A stretch of DNA of 64,000 bases. It comes from Sediminispirochaeta bajacaliforniensis DSM 16054 (GTDB lineage Bacteria > Spirochaetota > Spirochaetia > DSM-16054 > Sediminispirochaetaceae). A model generated the notes under the pieces. It saw only the letters and a list, made by a program, of their open reading frames with translations. It did no database searches and was not told where the DNA came from. The stretch is taken from assembly GCF_000378205.1 (NCBI RefSeq), contig NZ_KB899411.1, forward strand, positions 1-64,000. Reading direction: 5' to 3'. Every line of letters starts with the position of its first letter. The stretch's first letter is position 1. This document shows positions 54,021 to 63,764 of the stretch, in pieces. The position numbers and the translations under genes are program-made.

Positions 54021-55280
54021 ATGGCTGAAGTAAGTCTTGGATTTAAGCCGATGGAGGCATTCGACGTCAAAGGCAAACGGGTACTTTTACGCGTAGATAT
54101 CAACAGCCCCATCGATCCGAAAACAAAGAAAATCGTAAACGAAAACCGCATACAGAAAAGTCTGCCGACCATTTCCTGGCTCCTTGATCATGGGGCAAAA
54201 CTCGCAATGATCGCGCACCAGGGTGATACCCTCGATTATCAAAACCTGATCCCGTTGGAAGAACATGCTCAAAAACTGAGTGCCGGTCTCGGACGACCAG
54301 TCGATTATATCGATGATGTTTGCGGTCCGGCGGCCCAGCAGAAGGTGAAGGAACTTGCCGAAAGCCAGGCCATCCTTCTTGGTAACCTGCGCTACCTCTG
54401 CGAAGAGATATCGACTTTTGAGAATGCGGTAAAACTGAAGGCTGAAGAGATGCTGGATACCTATTTGGTTCGCTCTCTTGCCCCCTTATTCGACCTCTAT
54501 ATCAACGACGCCTTTGCTGCAGCACACAGAAACGCTCCAAGCATGGTGGCCTTTCAGGAGCTTCTTCCTTCTGCCGCAGGACCGCTTTTCTTTAAAGAGG
54601 TCTCCGCGCTGACGAAGGTAATGAAAAGTCCCGAGCATCCTTCGGTCTTCGTTCTCGGCGGAGCAAAGATATCAGACGCCTTCGGGATGATGGAACAGGT
54701 TCTTTCATCGGGCACAGCCGATAAAATTCTGGCCTGCGGCGTCACCGGTGAGGTGATGCTCATCGCTTCCGGCAGGAGGCTTGGAACAGCCACGGATAAA
54801 TTCCTTGCAGACAAGGGACTGGATGTTTTTATCGAGCCCGCGGCCAAATATTTGAAAGAGTATCCGGGAAGAATCATTGCTCCCGACGACCTGGCCTACG
54901 AAGAAAACGGAAAAAGACAGGAGTTAAACATCGAAGCGCTGCCGAAGGAAGCACTGTTCCTCGACATCGGAACAAAAACGATAGAACGCTTTGAAGCGGA
55001 AATCAAAGCGGCAGGCACTGTCTTCGTCAACGGTCCTGCCGGGGTATTCGAAGATGAGAAATTTGCAAAAGGGACCAAAAGGGTTTGGCAGGCAATAGCA
55101 TCGGCCCCCGGCTACACGGTAGTGGGGGGTGGCGACAGCGTAAGCGCTGCGGCCCGCTTTACCAATATGAGTGATTATAGCTATGTCTGCACCGCCGGCG
55201 GAGCAATGGTTCGCTTCCTTTCAGGCAAGAAGTTGCCGCTCATTGCCGCCATGGAAAAGGCCGGGAAGAAATGGAAGTAG
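54021..55280 (+). CDS. pgk: Archaeal-type phosphoglycerate kinase
   Basis: A 419-residue PGK whose sequence is closer to archaeal forms: LLRVDINSPIDP near residue 22, NRIQKSLPTI, MIAHQGD, LLGNLRYLCEE, YINDAFAAAHR, VFVLGGAKISDAF, VFVNGPAGVFED and VVGGGDSVSAA. It makes ATP from 1,3-bisphosphoglycerate, or the reverse in gluconeogenesis. Its partner reaction is encoded 78 bp upstream by the class II GAPDH. The 3' end overlaps the LarA-like gene by 10 bp. Confidence 0.92.
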   Translation: MAEVSLGFKPMEAFDVKGKRVLLRVDINSPIDPKTKKIVNENRIQKSLPTISWLLDHGAKLAMIAHQGDTLDYQNLIPLEEHAQKLSAGLGRPVDYIDDVCGPAAQQKVKELAESQAILLGNLRYLCEEISTFENAVKLKAEEMLDTYLVRSLAPLFDLYINDAFAAAHRNAPSMVAFQELLPSAAGPLFFKEVSALTKVMKSPEHPSVFVLGGAKISDAFGMMEQVLSSGTADKILACGVTGEVMLIASGRRLGTATDKFLADKGLDVFIEPAAKYLKEYPGRIIAPDDLAYEENGKRQELNIEALPKEALFLDIGTKTIERFEAEIKAAGTVFVNGPAGVFEDEKFAKGTKRVWQAIASAPGYTVVGGGDSVSAAARFTNMSDYSYVCTAGGAMVRFLSGKKLPLIAAMEKAGKKWK

Positions 55281-56518
55281 CACTTCCCTATTTGAAGAAT
55301 ACCATTTCCGTCACGGTTCCGGACAAAAACGTCCTTGCAGTAGTCGAACCAAATGACCTTCGGGCCAAGGGTGATACTGCAAGCATCGTGAATGCAGCCA
55401 TTGCCTCCCCTGTTGAGAGCAAGCCATTCGAAGCCTTTATAGCCGGAGCAAAGAACTTACTGGTCATTGTCAACGACCAGACTCGGCCGACCCCCACACG
55501 TGCGGTGCTCTCCGCCATTGCTCCGGCCCTGGCGAAGGTTGATCCTTCCTTCATCATTGCAACGGGAGTCCATAGAGGCCCCACGGAAGAAGAGTATCGG
55601 CAGATATTCGGAGATGAACTGTTCGAACGCTACCGGAACAAAATTCATGCCCATGATGCAAGAAAAGATGAGATGGTCTACCTCGGGACCAGCCGGGCCG
55701 GCACCGAAATGTACGTAAACAAGATGGGTGTCGATGCCGACAGAATTATCGTTATAGGATCGGTGGAACCCCACTACTTCGCAGGCTACACTGGAGGACG
55801 AAAAGGGTTTCTCCCCGGAATAGCCAGTTACCACACCATCGAACAGAACCATCGTCATGCCTTGCACCCCGGAGCAAAGGCGCTCAATCTCGAGGGAAAC
55901 CCGGTACACGAGGACATGATCGATGCACTCTCCGTGGTAAAAAAAGAGATCTTTGCGATCATGACGGTTCTGGACAAAAGCCACAACATCTACGCGGTAA
56001 CCGCCGGAGATATTAATGCATCCTTTTATCAGGCCATCGACAAGGCCGATGAAATTTTTGTGGCGGATATCCCCAGTCGGGCGGATATCGTGGTAAGCGT
56101 CGCCAAATACCCAATGGATATAGACCTCTATCAGGCGCAGAAGGCAATCGACAACGGTAAACTGGCTATGAAGGACGGAGGGATGATGATCCTCGTTGCA
56201 AGCTGCCGTGACGGAATCGGAGAGGAGGCCTTTGCACGCCTCCTCTCTTCCTCGGATACGCCCGAAGGGGTACTCAAGACAATTCAAAAAGAGTACAAAC
56301 TTGGGTATCACAAAGCGGGAAAGATGGCGGAGGTGTTTCTTCGGGGAGAGGTCCATGCCTATACCCAGCTCCCGGATGAACTGTTAAGCTCTTTTTTCAT
56401 CATCCCGGAGCATGATCTGCAAGCTGCCATTGACGAGGCCCTTAAAACAAAAGGCAGGGATGCCACAATTCTCTTTCTGCTTGACGGTAGCGTCACGGTC
56501 CCGAGAGCAGTAAGATAG
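55271..56518 (+). CDS. LarA-family nickel-pincer racemase/epimerase
   Basis: A 415-residue LarA superfamily (DUF2088) protein. Residues equivalent to those binding the nickel-pincer nucleotide are kept: H101, H168 (EPHYFAGYTGG), K178 (GGRKGFLPG, the covalent lysine) and H194, together with D69 and R72 (NDQTRPTP). Such enzymes racemise or epimerise 2-hydroxyacids. No larB, larC or larE cofactor genes are adjacent and must lie elsewhere. Lactate is the prototype substrate, but the malic enzyme 36 bp downstream makes malate a good candidate. Confidence 0.88.
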   Translation: MEVALPYLKNTISVTVPDKNVLAVVEPNDLRAKGDTASIVNAAIASPVESKPFEAFIAGAKNLLVIVNDQTRPTPTRAVLSAIAPALAKVDPSFIIATGVHRGPTEEEYRQIFGDELFERYRNKIHAHDARKDEMVYLGTSRAGTEMYVNKMGVDADRIIVIGSVEPHYFAGYTGGRKGFLPGIASYHTIEQNHRHALHPGAKALNLEGNPVHEDMIDALSVVKKEIFAIMTVLDKSHNIYAVTAGDINASFYQAIDKADEIFVADIPSRADIVVSVAKYPMDIDLYQAQKAIDNGKLAMKDGGMMILVASCRDGIGEEAFARLLSSSDTPEGVLKTIQKEYKLGYHKAGKMAEVFLRGEVHAYTQLPDELLSSFFIIPEHDLQAAIDEALKTKGRDATILFLLDGSVTVPRAVR

Positions 56519-56554
56519 CAAGAAGCGAACGAACAACGATAGGAGATTAATGAG

Positions 56555-57841
56555 ATGGATGAATTAAAAGAGAAGGCCCTGGCCTACCACAAACTTGACG
56601 GAAAACCGGGGAAACTCGAGGTGGTCCCGACAAAGCCGTGTCAGACCGCAGAGGATCTCTCCCTTGCCTATACGCCTGGGGTTGCCAAGCCGGTTCTGGA
56701 AATCGAAAAGGACACTGAGACTGCGTACGAATATACCAATAGGGGTAACCTTGTGGCAGTCATCAGTAACGGTACTGCTATTCTCGGTCTGGGGGATCGA
56801 GGCGCCCTTGCAAGCAAGCCGGTTATGGAGGGAAAAGGTGTCCTTTTTAAAAGGTTTGCCGACGTCGATGTTTTCGATATCGAAGTGGATACTCATGATC
56901 CGGAAAAGCTTATCGAGGTTGTTAAGATGCTGGAGCCTACCTTCGGCGGGGTGAACCTCGAAGATATCAAGGCGCCGGAATGCTTCGAGATCGAAAATCG
57001 TTTGAAAGCCGAAACCAATATTCCCATCTTCCACGACGACCAGCACGGTACGGCTATCATAGCCACCGCAGGTCTGATCAATGCGGCGGAAATTACGGGG
57101 AAAAAGCTTTCGGAGATGAAAATCGTCTATAACGGAGCAGGGGCCGCAGGAATCAGCTGCGCACGCATGTTCGTCGCCGCAGGGGGCAAAAAAGAGAACA
57201 TCATTATGTGCGATTCCAAGGGGGTTATCTTCAAGGGACGAACAGAGAGGATGACACCTCAAAAAGAAGAGTTTGCCTCCTCGACCTCGGCACGAACCCT
57301 TGCCGAAGCCATGAAGGGCGCCGATGTTTTTATGGGGCTCTCTGTTGCCGACTGTGTATCACCGGAGATGCTCGCAAGTATGGCATCTCAACCGGTGGTC
57401 TTTGCTATGAGCAATCCGAATCCCGAAATCGATTATCCCACCGCCGTGTCCGTGCGAAAAGATCTCATCATGGCCACCGGTCGAAGCGATTATCCCAACC
57501 AGATAAACAACGTCCTCGGTTTTCCCTTTATCTTTCGGGGAGCACTTGATGTCCGCGCGACCGGTATAACAGAAGGCATGAAAATGGCGGCCAGCAAGGC
57601 CCTCGCAGAACTTGCAAAGCAGCCCGTACCCGAGATTGTAAAGCGGGCATACGGTGGCAAGGAGTTTTCCTTTGGCCAGAACTATATCGTTCCCAAGCCC
57701 TTCGATCCCCGGGTCATCGAGTACGAAGCCGTCGCCGTTGCAAAGGCAGCATGTGAAGAGAAAGTCGCACGTAAGCCCATAACTGATTGGGATGCATACC
57801 GAAAAGAACTTGTCAAGCGCATGGAAAAGTACTGGAAATAG
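56555..57841 (+). CDS. NAD(P)-dependent malic enzyme
   Basis: A 428-residue short bacterial malic enzyme that oxidatively decarboxylates L-malate to pyruvate. [40 protein letters not shown], the metal/catalytic DIEVD and [10 protein letters not shown], and cofactor site [15 protein letters not shown] are present; no phosphotransacetylase-like C-terminal domain is fused. AGGAGA precedes ATG 56555. Last gene of the operon, ending at the 57859-57895 terminator. It would link malate from the LarA-like enzyme to pyruvate and reducing power. Confidence 0.93.
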
Positions 57842-57858
57842 CTAGCCGCTTTTATAGT

Positions 57859-57895
57859 AGGCATGGCCGCCGAAAGGTGATCATGCCTTTTTTTT
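57859..57895 (+). terminator. Rho-independent terminator of the malic enzyme operon
   Basis: AGGCATG (57859-57865) pairs with CATGCCT (57882-57888), with an inner CC-GAAA-GG tetraloop, followed by a T8 run. It overlaps the last codons of the convergent chemoreceptor gene. Confidence 0.85.
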
Positions 57896-60169
57896 GTTGC
57901 TCTCCTCAAGTTCAAAGGCGCAGACCAATTCTTTTTCGGAATTTGCAAGAGTCGATAGCTCTTCCGCACGCCGTGCCACCGCAACAATCTGTTTGTTCAG
58001 TTTATCGCTTGAGAGACGTACCCGATCGAATTGGCCGCTGTTTCGGTGATGAATTTCCATTACCGATAGAACGGTGGTCGCAACGCTCTGTGCCGAGGTC
58101 TCCATTTCGGAAAGAGCATTCAAGACTTCTTCCATCTTTGTGCGGTTGACAGAGGCCGCTTCATTTATCTCGGAAAGATGATTCTCCGCCGCCGATACCT
58201 GTTCATTGCTGGAACGGACAACATCGACAACCTCATCAGCATGTTTTTCGGCACTTTCCACCGAATTCAAAACCTCTTCCAACAAAGCGGTGATCTTTTC
58301 CGTAGCACTACTTGCACCCTCCGACAGGGTACGAATCTCATGCGCCACAACGGAAAACCCGGCACCGGCTTCTCCTGCTCGTGCAGCTTCAATCGAAGCG
58401 TTCATTGCAAGTAAATGAGTTTGGGCCGCAATATCCTCTATGGCGCCGATGATCGTCCGTATCTCACGTGAACGTTTTGCAAGCTCATTGATAAGCTCTT
58501 GCGTCGCTCTTGTCGAAGAGGTCAAGCGATCGCCGGCCTTCTTGGTCGCCATAATGGCCGCTCGTCCCCCGACGGCGGCGGCGGCAACCTGTTCGGCACG
58601 ACTTCCTGCCGAGTGTGTTTCTCTGGCAGCTATACCGACAAGTGAGGAAAGAGTATCCATTGCAAGCCGTGCTTCTTCCACCTCTTGTTGCTGAGAATCC
58701 AAAACATTCCGTACTGAAGAAAGCGCATCCTGAATATCGACAGTTGCCGATTCCGAATCACTTGCCCCACGTCTCAACTTCTCTCCTATCTTTGCCACGC
58801 GGTCGGCCTTCTCTTCTACTTCAACAATCATTCCTCGAAGGCTGAAAGGTTCCTGATTATAGGTGACGACCAGAAGCCCCTTGTCTACAGCCTTGTTTAT
58901 GACAGGGATCAAACGATCGCTGAAAAGAGGAATGGCAAAGCCATCGTACGTATCGGTAATAAGTCTTTCGATCATGTCTCTCCAGGCATCGACATCATAG
59001 TGATCTTTCCCCTTTGGAGGCAGTATGATGTCGACTGCACAATTTTTGGCCGCCAGAATCCGCCGTGCATCCTTGGCCCCTTTATAGACGGGAGGCCAAA
59101 AATCCTCATTCTTCGGTATAAGAAAGGCCAGTTTCAGCCCCCTGGAGGGACTCTCTTCCGAAAGCACGGCAAGCCCTTCACTTTCTGTGCTGTGGCCCAG
59201 ATGTTCGCGAAAGTTGTCTTTGGTAATGACCTTCGGCGTGATAAGCATTTTGGGATGCTCAGGTCTCCAAGAAGAAACCATCGAATTGAAAAGATAGACA
59301 AGAGGATTATACCCCTGCAGATAAGGACTCTGCGTAATAGTCGTGGTTAGGTACCCCGAATGGAAAAAATTGGAAAAACCCTCTCGTTTTCCGTGTCCGA
59401 AAAATGATATCGCTCCCGGAGATTTCAGTCGACGAAGTTCATCAAGGCTGTCCAGGGTAGTGGCTTCCTCAAGCTGGTAAACAGCCGCAAGATGCGGAAA
59501 ATCCTGCAACAGATTTCTTATCCCCTCTCTCGCACGCCTTGGATCCCTGCTTGTGTAGACAGTCCGAACAACATTTATCTTCGAAAAATCATTGTGAAGT
59601 GCATTTACAAAACCACGTTCCCGGAGGACCGAATAGTTTGTTTCTTCATTGACAGCAATAATCGCTATCTCGCCTTCCCCTCCAAGACGAGCCCCCACGA
59701 TCTGTCCCATCAGTTGGCCGTGTAGATAGTCGTCGATACCGGTGAAACAAATTCGCCGCACAGGCTCGGCAGTTAGTGAAGCGATACCGAGCATTGCCCG
59801 GTCAATTGCATCAGAAGATGCCGAAAATGCCGAATATAGTGATCGGTAGAGGGCACCATAAGGAGGGGTCACATCAATAGCAGAAAGATCGACATGGGCA
59901 CAAAGATTTCCTCTGGCGATTTCCCAAACGGCTCTTTCAAAAGGAGCAATTCCTTGATTACGAATAGCACGGGCGGCTTGCACGCCATATCGTACAAGCC
60001 GTCTGTTGGCAATAAAAGAGGTTCCCCAGCCATAGAGAACGACCACAAAAAGTAAAACCGTCAGGATAAATAAAACCGGATCCGCTATACCGGCGTGAAG
60101 TAAACGCACAACAACTATAGCCAATAGCGTAGAGCCGGAAAGAATACAAGCTATCGTGTTTTTTCCCAA
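57881..60169 (-). CDS. Chemoreceptor with permuted sugar-binding-type sensor and no membrane segment before the signalling domain
   Basis: A 762-residue protein, TTG start 60169 behind GAGGT. Two adjacent N-terminal helices (about 4-26 and 31-50) are the only membrane segments, then a HAMP-like region (75-125). Residues 138-320 match the C-terminal lobe of RbsB/LacI-type binding domains ([42 protein letters not shown]). Residues 345-440 match the N-terminal lobe ([41 protein letters not shown]). The lobe order is therefore inverted. A full MCP signalling domain follows (hairpin [20 protein letters not shown] near 580-599). With no helix between sensor and signalling parts, both should be cytoplasmic. 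Confidence 0.85.
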
Positions 60170-60207
60170 AATTTTACCTCACATTCTATCTTTATTTTTC
60201 TATGTTT

Positions 60208-60236
60208 AGGATACCATGGGCATTCCGAGGCGTAAA
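60208..60236 (-). promoter_or_regulatory. Candidate promoter of the chemoreceptor gene
   Basis: On the minus strand TTTACG (60236-60231), 17 nt, TATCCT (60213-60208), leaving a leader of about 35 nt with GAGGT before the TTG start. Confidence 0.45.
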
Positions 60237-60357
60237 TAACAATCGTCAATAAAATTTTGACACTTGTTCACTTTGTTTTGTGTCAGGAATATTGGTGGCA
60301 CACACCAATCTACTTAACGATTGTAATGAGAAATACATATCACCAGGATTCGAAACA

Positions 60358-61239
60358 CTAAGCAAGCCTCGAAAGATGTTCGTTCAATACGGTTATGCCG
60401 GTAAGGGGCTTATCAGCAAGCGGATTCTGCGAAATAGTTACGTCGGGAAACGCTTCAGCGACACGCTCTGTCCATTCACCCATCCCAGTATATTTATTGA
60501 CGATGATTCGGCCGATTTCCATTCCGAACCCCGCCAATTGGCGTTTGATCAGAAGACTTTCCGAAAAGCTCAACTCGTCTTCATTAAGTATAAGTACGAT
60601 TTCGGTTTGCGTTCGATCACAGAGCAACGACAAAAGCGTATCGTAACGCTTTTGCATACGCACCAGGCGAGAAAAGATCGGATCATGGTCTCGGTCGATG
60701 GAAGACTCGCTATGTATTTCGGCTACACGATTTTTCTTTAGAAGTATCTCTTCCCTCATCGCTTTTAAATGGCGAATCCAGTGAAGATTTACCCCCGGCA
60801 AAGCCAGCATCTTCATGGTGAGCGCCGTTGGGGGAGTATCGATAACAAGCTCATCGTAGCGACGCTCATCATAACATCGTTGAAGAATCAAAAGTGCGGC
60901 GTATTCTTCCATACCAGGAGCAAATTTCAACAAGTTAAAATACTTATCGATGTTCAAGGCTTGCTGATAGTGGTAGAGATTCTTCAACTCTCCACGAATT
61001 TCCGCCATATACTCACGCCCCTTCTGGCTCGTATCTGATTCTCGAACGGTAAGAGTCGGCAGAATTTTCTTTCCCTTTGCCCCCAGTTCTGTCCGAAAAA
61101 TATCATGGAGATTATGAGCAGGGTCCATGGAGTCAAGCAGCGTTTTACGCTGCGAAGAAGCCAATCTCAGAGCCTCCAGGCAAGAGCAGGTTGACTTCCC
61201 GACACCGCCCTTTCCCACGAAAATATGATATCGCGGCAT
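60358..61239 (-). CDS. ArsA/Get3-family ATPase
   Basis: A 293-residue P-loop ATPase with the deviant Walker A GKGGVGKST (9-17, intradimer Lys10), switch I DPAHNLHD (39-46) and the Walker B/switch II stretch VIDTPPTALTMKML (132-145), all diagnostic of the ArsA/Get3 group. The arsenite-binding cysteines of ArsA and the CxxC zinc motif of eukaryotic Get3 are absent, and no arsenic genes are nearby. A single domain suggests a homodimer. ATG 61239 overlaps the upstream stop (TGATG), in an operon with a small protein and a four-helix membrane protein. Its role could be membrane-protein targeting rather than arsenic export. Confidence 0.85.
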   Translation of the reverse strand: MPRYHIFVGKGGVGKSTCSCLEALRLASSQRKTLLDSMDPAHNLHDIFRTELGAKGKKILPTLTVRESDTSQKGREYMAEIRGELKNLYHYQQALNIDKYFNLLKFAPGMEEYAALLILQRCYDERRYDELVIDTPPTALTMKMLALPGVNLHWIRHLKAMREEILLKKNRVAEIHSESSIDRDHDPIFSRLVRMQKRYDTLLSLLCDRTQTEIVLILNEDELSFSESLLIKRQLAGFGMEIGRIIVNKYTGMGEWTERVAEAFPDVTISQNPLADKPLTGITVLNEHLSRLA

Positions 61240-61523
61240 CACGGTTCCCCCATGATACTTGCAAGCTCACTCAAACCGTTTCCGGTTTGACTCGCCCTAA
61301 GGAGCATATGTTCCAACTCCTCCGCCATATCCGGCAGCAGCTCTAAGGTTAAGGGCATTGAAGGCCCAGGCAAGCCGATAAAATTTCCAAAAAGCATGAG
61401 AGTAAAGGAATTTTCCATCTCGGAAATTTCATACTCAATTTGGGCCGTTGCTTTGTAAAGCATGGCCTGTTGAAATCCCCGAAAAAAAGCACGAATAGAT
61501 AGCCACAAACGATTATGTTTCAT
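61239..61523 (-). CDS. Small protein of the ArsA/Get3-like operon, unknown
   Basis: A 94-residue protein; ATG 61523 lies inside the end of the upstream gene (11-bp overlap), with GTG 61526 as the alternative. It has a basic N-terminus (MKHNRLWLSIRAFFRGFQQ), an acidic middle, a short hydrophobic stretch (SFTLMLFGNFIGLPGPSMPL) and an amphipathic C-terminal helix (LPDMAEELEHMLL). No known family. Overlaps on both sides mean its translation is coupled to both partners, so a small adaptor of the ATPase is a fair guess. Confidence 0.6.
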   Translation of the reverse strand: MKHNRLWLSIRAFFRGFQQAMLYKATAQIEYEISEMENSFTLMLFGNFIGLPGPSMPLTLELLPDMAEELEHMLLRASQTGNGLSELASIMGEP

Positions 61524-61962
61524 CACTTTTTACCCTAAAAGCAGCAATATCCTTTTTATATGTTTTATTGGCGGGAAAAACCGAATAGATCCCGTATATC
61601 GTAACCAGGACCGAAAGGTAAAGATGATATCGATACACAGGAACAAGATAGGCAAAGAGAGTGAAAAGTGCCCCAAACAAAACGCACAGAACGAGGCACC
61701 TCTCCATACGAAAAAATTCAGACAGGCTAAGCCCATCCTGATGTGCACTTTTCCGATAAAAGGCCATCCTAACAAGAATGGGAAGAGCAACAGCGCCTGT
61801 CGTGCTCCCCAACAGACCAACCATCGATAAAACACGGGTCGGTTCGGCGGGAAAAGCCCACCCCAGATAACGCATAAACCAAATCGCCACTAAACCAAGG
61901 GAAAACAGAACCATCATCAGGTACGCCTGAAGGCGGATTCTATGAAGTAATGTTTCAAGCAT
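61513..61962 (-). CDS. Four-helix membrane protein of the ArsA/Get3-like operon
   Basis: A 149-residue integral membrane protein with about four helices (MMVLFSLGLVAIWFM, LSMVGLLGSTTGAVALPILV, CLVLCVLFGALFTLFAYLV, YLSVLVTIYGIYSVF) and a charged cytoplasmic tail (NKTYKKDIAAFRVKSDET). No recognised family. First gene of the operon, overlapping the small-protein gene. By position it could be the membrane receptor or client channel for the ATPase; that is inference only. Confidence 0.65.
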   Translation of the reverse strand: MLETLLHRIRLQAYLMMVLFSLGLVAIWFMRYLGWAFPAEPTRVLSMVGLLGSTTGAVALPILVRMAFYRKSAHQDGLSLSEFFRMERCLVLCVLFGALFTLFAYLVPVYRYHLYLSVLVTIYGIYSVFPANKTYKKDIAAFRVKSDET

Positions 61963-61980
61963 TCAGTATCATCCTTCAAG

Positions 61981-62016
61981 AAAAAAGCCGGGCGATGAAA
62001 ACTCACATCGCCCGGC
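61981..62016 (-). terminator. Rho-independent terminator after cstA
   Basis: On the minus strand GCCGGGCGATG pairs with CATCGCCCGGC (11 bp, 8-nt loop, 61987-62016), followed by T6 read from 61986-61981. Confidence 0.95.
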
Positions 62017-62024
62017 AAGGTTCA

Positions 62025-63764
62025 CTATGCCTGAGCAGCCTGCATATCTTCTTTACTGAAGAGCTTCTTTAGGCTTTCGAAAGCTACAAAAATCACGATG
62101 AGAATAATGGCCAGATTGATAATCCCCAAGAGCACCTTTGTACCGGCAATATAACTCATCTCGTTCTCAATCAAAGCCCAGAAGGTCAGAACGAGCATGA
62201 AAATGCCGGGAAGCAGGGTAACCAAATACTTTTGCCCGCCCCGTTGCTTGAGATAGACCGAAGCGGTAAAAAGGGCCAGAGCGGCAAGGGTCTGGTTGTT
62301 GGCGCCGAAAAGAGGCCAAAGAGCCATGGCTCCCTTTCCATTGGCTCCGGTCGAGAAGGCCAAAATTCCTGCGGTAAGCAACGCGAGAATAGTTGCACCG
62401 TATTTGTTGGTGAAAAAGCTTTTTTTCTCGGCGGCACCTACACGATTGGCCCCCAATAATTCCTGAATAACATAACGCTGGAGTCGTGTTGTGGTATCCA
62501 TTGACGTTCCGGCAAAGGAAGCAACAAATACCCCCATGATGATCAGGCCGAGGTATTTGGGAATGCCCAAGTAGCTTATCATGTTGGCGGATCCTTCGAC
62601 GAAGGCTCCGACCTTGGCGCCCAAACCTGCAGCAGCGCTCCAGGATGCATAATGCTGGGTCCACTTTGCAAGACCGGTAACCGCCCCGGTCTCTCCACGT
62701 GCAGCAAGGCCGATACCGGCGGCAGTCGCAATAATGACAATGACAGCCAGGGCCCCTTCCATCAGCATAGAGCCGTATCCGATAAACTGTGCATCTTCCT
62801 CTTTTGCAACCTGTTTCGCCGTCGTCCCCGAGGCAACCACCGAGTGGAAGCCGGAGATAGCGCCGCAGGCTATGGTAATAAAGAGAAAGGGCCAGAGAGA
62901 CGGAGCTCCCTCAGGAGCCGCCTGTACCGCAGGCGCAACAATCTTCAGTCCGTTAAAGGACGCTGCAATAACAGCGATAACAACCAAGCCCATTGCAATA
63001 AAAAGTTCCCAGGCATTAATATAGTCCCGAGGTTGAAGCAATGTGGTAACCGGCAAAGTAGAAGCGATGAAGCAGTATACAAAGAGAATGAGGGTCCACA
63101 CGCCCGTTGCCGGCATTCCGCCGATGGTAGGCATGTCGAGGGGAATGACATGGCCTAAAACAACGGTAATATACATAGCGACAACAGCTAAAACGGTTGC
63201 TCGGTTGACATGTGCATTGCGCTTGTAAATTGCCCACCCCAGGATTATAGCAATGGGTATCTCCATCCATACCGGGAAAACCGCCTCAGGGTACATATGA
63301 AAGATGACGGCGATGATCATGCCCAATATAGCCAGAAATAACCACAGCTCGATAAAGACAATCAGGAAAAAGGCTACACGAATTCTTTTACTGATATATC
63401 CCGCTGCGACTTCGGATATAGACTTTCCCTGGTTCCTGAGCGACATAACCAGAACACTGAAGTCCTGTACCGCTCCCATAACAATAGAACCCACGAGTAC
63501 CCAAATGAGTGCCGGTAGCCATCCCCATATGACACCGATGGCAGGTCCTACAATCGGTCCGGTTCCGGCAATGGAAGTAAAGTGGTGGCCAAATATAATT
63601 CCTCGTTTTGTCGGAACATAATCGACACCATCCGTGAACTCTACCGCCGGTGTTTTGTTCTGATTCGTCAGTTGGAAGATCTTTTTTCCGACAAACTCAC
63701 CATACAACCGGTAGGCTATGATATAGCCGGCAAAAGCTACTATCATAATTAAAACAGCATCCAT
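62025..63764 (-). CDS. cstA: CstA-family peptide/pyruvate transporter
   Basis: A 579-residue integral membrane protein with about 15-16 hydrophobic segments. Family motifs are YGEFVGKKIF, TKRGIIFGHHFTSIAGTGPIVGPAIG, MGAVQDFSVLVMSLRNQGKS, FHSVVASGTTAKQV and FVASFAGTSMDTTTRLQRYV. CstA proteins take up peptides or pyruvate, often under carbon limitation. AGGAGG lies 7 nt upstream of ATG 63764. Monocistronic, with its own promoter and terminator. Confidence 0.95.
   Translation of the reverse strand: MDAVLIMIVAFAGYIIAYRLYGEFVGKKIFQLTNQNKTPAVEFTDGVDYVPTKRGIIFGHHFTSIAGTGPIVGPAIGVIWGWLPALIWVLVGSIVMGAVQDFSVLVMSLRNQGKSISEVAAGYISKRIRVAFFLIVFIELWLFLAILGMIIAVIFHMYPEAVFPVWMEIPIAIILGWAIYKRNAHVNRATVLAVVAMYITVVLGHVIPLDMPTIGGMPATGVWTLILFVYCFIASTLPVTTLLQPRDYINAWELFIAMGLVVIAVIAASFNGLKIVAPAVQAAPEGAPSLWPFLFITIACGAISGFHSVVASGTTAKQVAKEEDAQFIGYGSMLMEGALAVIVIIATAAGIGLAARGETGAVTGLAKWTQHYASWSAAAGLGAKVGAFVEGSANMISYLGIPKYLGLIIMGVFVASFAGTSMDTTTRLQRYVIQELLGANRVGAAEKKSFFTNKYGATILALLTAGILAFSTGANGKGAMALWPLFGANNQTLAALALFTASVYLKQRGGQKYLVTLLPGIFMLVLTFWALIENEMSYIAGTKVLLGIINLAIILIVIFVAFESLKKLFSKEDMQAAQA

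What the first reader, a model, noticed from the sequence alone, without database searches (positions are those of the whole stretch)
57881..60169. Chemoreceptor with an apparently cytoplasmic, lobe-inverted periplasmic-binding-protein sensor
Seen: two N-terminal membrane helices, then a region matching the C-terminal lobe of RbsB/LacI-type sugar-binding folds (residues 138-320), then one matching the N-terminal lobe (345-440), then the MCP signalling domain with no intervening membrane segment. In known binding proteins the N-lobe comes first, so this is a circular permutation or lobe swap. Because the MCP hairpin must be cytoplasmic, the sensor should be too, giving a receptor for an intracellular sugar or metabolite (inference). 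I know of no described chemoreceptor with this plan.
Basis: partly seen in the sequence, partly recalled or inferred. Interest (0 to 1): 0.78.

Follow-up and report, generated by a model that had tools for sequence, protein, structure and literature searches.

The report
Chemoreceptor with inside-facing, lobe-swapped sugar-binding sensor
A spirochaete chemotaxis receptor carries a sugar-binding-protein fold whose two halves come in swapped order and which should sit inside the cell rather than outside, so it probably steers swimming by the level of an internal sugar-like molecule; it belongs to a small, previously unremarked spirochaete family.

Summary
The gene at 57881-60169 (minus strand, 762 aa) encodes two N-terminal membrane helices, a type-I periplasmic-binding-protein (PBP) domain in C-lobe-then-N-lobe order, and an MCP hairpin, with no membrane segment after the sensor. 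Peripla_BP_4 matches residues 134-289 to profile 90-246, then 352-441 to profile 6-91, the only inverted match among 65 in the genome. The sensor aligns unbroken to self-concatenated normal binding proteins. AlphaFold2 gives one confident unit (pLDDT 91, pTM 0.87) matching the permuted TpMglB-2 over its whole length. Twenty-two such ORFs occur in 19 Spirochaetota genomes; no stand-alone binding protein found there has this order. All members checked lack a later membrane helix, and the sensor-to-tip distance is fixed at 152 or 155 residues. The sensor is therefore most likely cytoplasmic and joined to the signalling hairpin by one continuous helix. Core pocket residues persist, so it probably binds a sugar-like or related cytoplasmic metabolite; the ligand is unknown and gene neighbours give no clue. 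The permutation itself has precedents (T. pallidum MglB-2; Rhodopirellula 5er3) with other cut points. No chemoreceptor of this plan was found in the literature searched.

The parts
57881..60169 (-). Whole gene: 762-aa chemoreceptor, TTG start
   Evidence: ORF, translation, Pfam, 95% identical protein in the congener G001 and 22-33% in further genera
60176..60180 (-). Ribosome-binding-like GAGGT, 6 nt before the TTG start
   Evidence: sequence
60098..60154 (-). Membrane helix 1, residues 6-24
   Evidence: KD 2.32; AF2 helix 3-25
60035..60091 (-). Membrane helix 2, residues 27-45, followed by NRRLVR (positive side)
   Evidence: KD 2.64; AF2 helix 30-85
59774..60034 (-). Residues 46-132: helix - GNL turn (G87 and L89 invariant) - connector - helix; HAMP-like in layout but no Pfam HAMP match in any of 20 members
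   Evidence: AF2, alignment, Pfam
59210..59758 (-). Sensor part 1, residues 138-320: last strand of the N-lobe (141-144), then the C-lobe (strands 165-172, 197-205, 227-232, 255-259, 276-279) and return hinge (307-315)
   Evidence: Peripla_BP_4 profile 90-246 at residues 134-289; AF2
59138..59209 (-). Residues 321-344: loop joining the old C-terminus to the old N-terminus, lower model confidence
   Evidence: AF2 pLDDT 66-90 in blocks 321-340
58850..59137 (-). Sensor part 2, residues 345-440: first four strands of the N-lobe (345-350, 377-382, 410-414, 433-438)
   Evidence: Peripla_BP_4 profile 6-91 at residues 352-441; AF2
57941..58849 (-). Residues 441-743: continuous helix out of the sensor into the MCP hairpin; tip RAGEAG at 597-602
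   Evidence: AF2 helix 444-499; phmmer to T. maritima MCP 2ch7 over 455-743; spacing R445-to-tip 152 aa
58058..58549 (-). MCPsignal domain match
   Evidence: PF00015, 109.1 bits

Best explanation
It is a membrane-anchored chemoreceptor whose ligand sensor is a circularly permuted type-I PBP (RbsB/AlsB-like) domain lying in the cytoplasm. A TM hairpin holds it in the inner membrane. The cut that made the permutation lies in the short loop between N-lobe strands 4 and 5, so the chain enters and leaves the sensor on neighbouring strands of the same N-lobe, and the exit strand runs straight into the MCP stalk helix. Proposed action (inferred): a small cytoplasmic ligand, most likely a sugar, sugar derivative or similar polar metabolite brought in or made inside the cell, closes the two lobes. 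Pocket residues N438/E440, which end the last N-lobe strand, sit only a few residues from the stalk helix and its invariant R445, so closure shifts that helix and changes CheA control at the hairpin tip. Shown: lobe order, predicted fold, one-sided topology (by hydropathy), fixed-length coupling, retained pocket residues. Inferred: ligand class, direction of response, helix movement.
For: Permuted order by Pfam, phmmer, doubled-SBP and re-ordered-query tests. AF2 of residues 1-500 (pLDDT 85, pTM 0.74) and of the sensor alone (pLDDT 91, pTM 0.87). Foldseek: normal SBPs mostly align over about 180-220 columns, permuted TpMglB-2 over 355-381 columns with TMq 0.58-0.59. No TM segment after residue 110 in the window protein, and none near membrane level in 17 homologues. 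22 full-length members in 19 genomes, all in ORFs of 722-824 aa; those aligned or read in full have MCP hairpins. R445-to-tip distance 152 aa in 14 and 155 in 4 of 18 members. R183 and E440 invariant in 22/22; Q280 and N438 mostly kept, as in stand-alone SBPs. Ten CheW-domain matches and 31 MCPsignal matches in the genome, so a chemotaxis system is present.
Against: No ligand is known and no gene neighbour is conserved beyond the genus or closest species. The clade of this protein has G in place of the SBP aspartate at position 260, so ligand chemistry differs from ordinary sugar SBPs. The models were made from family members only, and I could not inspect coordinates, so lobe closure and helix geometry are not shown. 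Methylation sites were not examined in depth.
Confidence: 0.72

Rival explanations
1. The permuted domain no longer binds a small molecule but docks a protein, for example a cytoplasmic transporter or PTS component, and reports transport activity.
For: Pocket position 260 (Asp in all 19 SBPs) is Gly in this clade; no ligand evidence from neighbours.
Against: R183, E440 and R445 are invariant in 22 members whose sensors are only 21-96% identical to this one, and Q280/N438 are largely kept, which fits a working pocket.
Confidence: 0.13
2. The signal comes from the membrane hairpin and HAMP-like linker (as in Aer-type energy sensing), and the PBP domain only modulates it.
For: G87 and L89 of the linker are invariant, and a TM anchor is kept in all members examined.
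Against: Anchor sequence and number vary (two TMs in 13, one in 5 of 18 members), while the sensor and the sensor-to-tip spacing are conserved.
Confidence: 0.1
3. Two unrelated half-domains that do not fold together: a C-lobe left from one binding protein and an N-lobe from another.
For: Simple fusion could also give this order.
Against: The same SBPs match both halves; AF2 makes one unit with pTM 0.87; it superposes end to end on permuted TpMglB-2.
Confidence: 0.03
4. The sensor is periplasmic and the hydrophobicity analysis missed a membrane segment between sensor and MCP.
For: Typical chemoreceptors have periplasmic sensors (established knowledge).
Against: Lowest summed Hessa value after residue 110 is 9.9 here and at least 5.3 in every one of 18 members; residues 444-499 are one helix of soluble type in the model.
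Confidence: 0.02

Closest known systems
TpMglB-2 (Tp0684), T. pallidum, PDB 5jx2/6bgd, 'Type Ic / Cluster Bc' ligand-binding protein (PMC4990184)
   Same: Circularly permuted type-I PBP from a spirochaete, N-lobe strands moved to the C-terminus; whole-length Foldseek match.
   Different: Periplasmic lipoprotein of an ABC transporter, not fused to a receptor; three N-lobe strands moved rather than four; only 12-14% identity; binds glucose.
R. baltica solute-binding protein 5er3
   Same: C-lobe sequence precedes N-lobe; best Foldseek hit and collinear phmmer match.
   Different: Cut appears to lie inside the C-lobe (strand 4/5 and first half of the C-lobe match its residues 256-329, a weak match); stand-alone SBP; no paper found.
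RbsB/AlsB/RhaS family SBPs (Peripla_BP_4)
   Same: Same fold and R183, Q280, N438, E440 pocket positions.
   Different: Normal order, secreted, no signalling domain; all NCBIfam matches far below cut-off.
Cytoplasmic-sensor MCPs (e.g. PAS-containing, Aer-like)
   Same: Sensor on the cytoplasmic side, coupled to the hairpin (topology from established knowledge).
   Different: PAS or other small domains; none with a PBP sensor found in the papers searched.
BT1754 hybrid two-component sensor (2x7x) and a LacI-type sensor kinase in the same genome (L115)
   Same: PBP-I fold used directly as sensor of a signalling protein.
   Different: Normal lobe order; histidine kinase output; BT1754's domain is periplasmic.

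Membership tests
Methyl-accepting chemotaxis protein (MCP) | MCPsignal hairpin with conserved tip | tested here: met
   PF00015 over 541-704, 104-109 bits; tip [13 protein letters not shown]; hairpin arms about 152 and 166 aa
Methyl-accepting chemotaxis protein (MCP) | Functions in chemotaxis through CheA/CheW | not testable with these tools
   ten CheW-domain matches present in the genome
Canonical chemoreceptor with periplasmic ligand domain | Ligand domain flanked by two TM helices | tested here: not met
   both TMs lie before the sensor; none after residue 110
Canonical chemoreceptor with periplasmic ligand domain | HAMP domain | tested here: inconclusive
   helix-GNL-connector-helix layout before the sensor, but no Pfam HAMP match in 20 members; none between sensor and hairpin
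Type-I periplasmic-binding-protein fold (Peripla_BP_4) | Two Rossmann-like lobes with hinge and ligand cleft | tested here: met
   Pfam, AF2 pTM 0.87, Foldseek
Type-I periplasmic-binding-protein fold (Peripla_BP_4) | N-lobe first, C-lobe second | tested here: not met
   profile 90-246 precedes profile 6-91; doubled-SBP test
Type Ic / Cluster Bc permuted binding proteins (TpMglB-2) | Circularly permuted N-lobe | tested here: met
   four C-terminal N-lobe strands 345-438
Type Ic / Cluster Bc permuted binding proteins (TpMglB-2) | Cut before N-lobe strand 4, close sequence relationship to TpMglB-2, secreted ABC component | tested here: not met
   cut is between strands 4 and 5 (against PMC4990184); 12-14% identity; fused to an MCP

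The most novel reading that the evidence does not exclude
A new class of chemoreceptor in which a circularly permuted binding-protein domain reads a cytoplasmic metabolite, the permutation having been kept because it puts the exit of the ligand cleft directly onto the signalling helix, so flytrap closure moves the stalk without a HAMP relay.
Probability: 0.45. Interest if true: 0.75.

Novelty: new variant of a known kind. Interest (0 to 1): 0.62.

Why it matters
Binding proteins normally act outside the cell and reach chemoreceptors by docking. Here the binding fold is built into the receptor, turned to the inside and re-wired. That gives a compact model for how a flytrap domain can drive an MCP hairpin directly, a candidate metabolite-taxis receptor family in spirochaetes, and a natural example of circular permutation reused for signal coupling. 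It also means that annotation by Peripla_BP alone would wrongly suggest a periplasmic sensor.

Tried and rejected
Rfam: nothing in the window. Gene neighbours: none shared beyond the genus or closest species, so no ligand clue. HAMP by Pfam: none. Sigma-70 promoter scan: fewer sites than in shuffles. Considered and rejected: chance match (shuffles give none); a complete two-lobe domain in 138-320 alone (secondary structure shows one lobe plus one strand); sequencing or frame artefact (95% identical full-length protein in the congener, and the same order in other families of the phylum). Literature searches for PBP-type or permuted chemoreceptor sensors found no description; subscription papers are not held, so this is not proof of absence.

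Full report
What is there. The minus-strand ORF 57881-60169 codes for 762 residues from a TTG start with GAGGT six bases upstream. Pfam finds MCPsignal at 541-704 and Peripla_BP_4 in two stretches (E 1.5e-27). In the genome-wide search these are residues 134-289 against profile positions 90-246 and residues 352-441 against positions 6-91, that is, C-lobe first and N-lobe second. Of 65 Peripla_BP_4 matches in the genome, this gene alone has the inverted order.

Is the order real? PDB binding proteins such as 3g1w, 6sw4, 6gq0 and 2qvc each match both halves in swapped order, so the two lobes come from the same kind of protein. Stand-alone binding proteins from related genomes match the family profile in normal order, N-lobe first. 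When these are concatenated with themselves, the sensor aligns as one unbroken stretch across the joint: for the best target 105.7 bits over sensor residues 10-314 (protein 137-441), against 58.2 and 45.5 bits for the two separate stretches on the native protein. Restoring the normal order in the query joins the stretches on several native targets; 20 shuffled sensors give no hit.

Fold. AlphaFold2 with a 20-member family alignment gives mean pLDDT 85 and pTM 0.74 for residues 1-500; with 22 members the sensor alone reaches 91.1 and 0.87. The strand order is one N-lobe strand (141-144), five C-lobe strands (165-279), a return hinge, then four N-lobe strands (345-350, 377-382, 410-414, 433-438), then helix 444-499. 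Foldseek, which is sequential, mostly aligns normal binding proteins over about 180-220 columns but the permuted T. pallidum MglB-2 over 355-381 columns with TMq 0.58-0.59. I could not open the model coordinates, so lobe packing is judged from pTM and the end-to-end match only.

Topology. Membrane helices lie at 6-24 and 27-45, with NRRLVR following. After residue 110 the lowest summed Hessa value of any 19-mer is 9.9; across 18 family members it never falls below 5.3, whereas the N-terminal anchors lie between -6.7 and 3.4. Thirteen members have two N-terminal helices and five have one. Because the MCP hairpin must meet CheA in the cytoplasm (established knowledge), the sensor must be on the same side. 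Residues 46-132 have a helix-GNL-connector-helix layout that recalls HAMP, with G87 and L89 invariant, but no Pfam HAMP match occurs in any of 20 members.

Family. Full-length matches to the sensor profile were found in 20 ORFs of 17 genomes among 395 of the class, and two more genomes were added from a phylum sample, one of them from another class. All lie in frames of 722-824 aa; those aligned or read in full carry the MCP hairpin. Stand-alone binding proteins in the same genomes match only in normal order. Named members are Alkalispirochaeta alkalica and an uncultured Spirochaeta; the 95% identical congener has a 4,653,970-bp chromosome, the size published for Spirochaeta smaragdinae (PMC3035371). 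Sensor identities to the window protein run from 96% down to 21%. A tree puts the window protein with Alkalispirochaeta in a fully supported clade of five. Gene neighbourhoods are not conserved.

Coupling. The distance from the invariant R445, at the sensor's exit, to the hairpin tip is exactly 152 residues in 14 of 18 members and 155 in the other four, although full-length identity is often near 23%. A constant spacing like this is expected if one rigid helix carries the signal from sensor to tip. There is no HAMP or other module between them.

Pocket. By profile alignment with normal binding proteins, R183 (R in 22/22 members and 19/19 SBPs), Q280, N438 and E440 are kept. From established knowledge of RbsB, the first three correspond to its ligand-binding Arg141, Gln235 and Asp89 positions (my mapping by motif, not by structure). 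In the window clade the SBP aspartate at 260 (RbsB Asp215) is glycine next to a conserved H259, so the ligand probably differs from a plain sugar of the transport type. The nearest NCBIfam binding-protein models are D-allose, rhamnose and rhizopine, all far below their cut-offs.

How it probably works (inference). The permutation cut lies between N-lobe strands 4 and 5. In the normal fold these are neighbours joined by a short loop, so both chain ends leave the same lobe. The exit strand ends in the pocket residues N438-Q-E440 and passes within a few residues into the stalk helix. Ligand-driven closure of the C-lobe onto the N-lobe would act on that helix and shift the dynamics of the hairpin. 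The ligand should be cytoplasmic, most likely a sugar or similar polar metabolite.

What is known. Permuted type-I binding proteins are known: TpMglB-2, described as the founder of 'Type Ic / Cluster Bc' with relatives in treponemes and Gram-positives (PMC4990184), and, from the alignments here, R. baltica 5er3, whose cut appears to lie inside the C-lobe. The window family has a third cut point (four N-lobe strands moved, not three), low identity to TpMglB-2, and a different location and output. A LacI-like, normal-order sensor kinase without membrane helices in the same genome (L115) shows that PBP-type sensors can also act inside this cell. No paper in the open-access library was found to describe a chemoreceptor with a PBP-I sensor in the cytoplasm or a permuted one.

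Verdict. Observation confirmed; interpretation supported, with the correction that lobe-swapped binding proteins already exist. I rate it a new variant of a known kind: a real, conserved and so far unremarked chemoreceptor architecture whose ligand and dynamics are open to direct test.

Noticed in passing
L115 939-3341 (G000 contig C12): 800-aa soluble-looking LacI-type PBP sensor (normal order) fused to a HisKA_3/HATPase histidine kinase; no membrane helix, so a cytoplasmic PBP-type sensor kinase in the same genome.
   Followed up: partly
PDB 5er3 (Rhodopirellula baltica), not in the window: Deposited solute-binding protein that by sequence is itself circularly permuted, apparently inside the C-lobe; no paper found noting this.
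   Followed up: partly
L070, L071, L074, L076 (G035, G010, G053, G055): Sub-group with +3 residues in the descending and +4 in the ascending hairpin arm, together one heptad, and a single TM anchor.
   Followed up: no
L069 2381-4654 and 4834-7113: Two family members lie in tandem in one genome.
   Followed up: no
window 54021-63764: Neighbours: phosphoglycerate kinase, LarA-like lactate racemase and malic enzyme on the other strand; 60358-61242 a single ArsA-type ATPase; 62025-63764 CstA. The order is shared with the congener only.
   Followed up: partly
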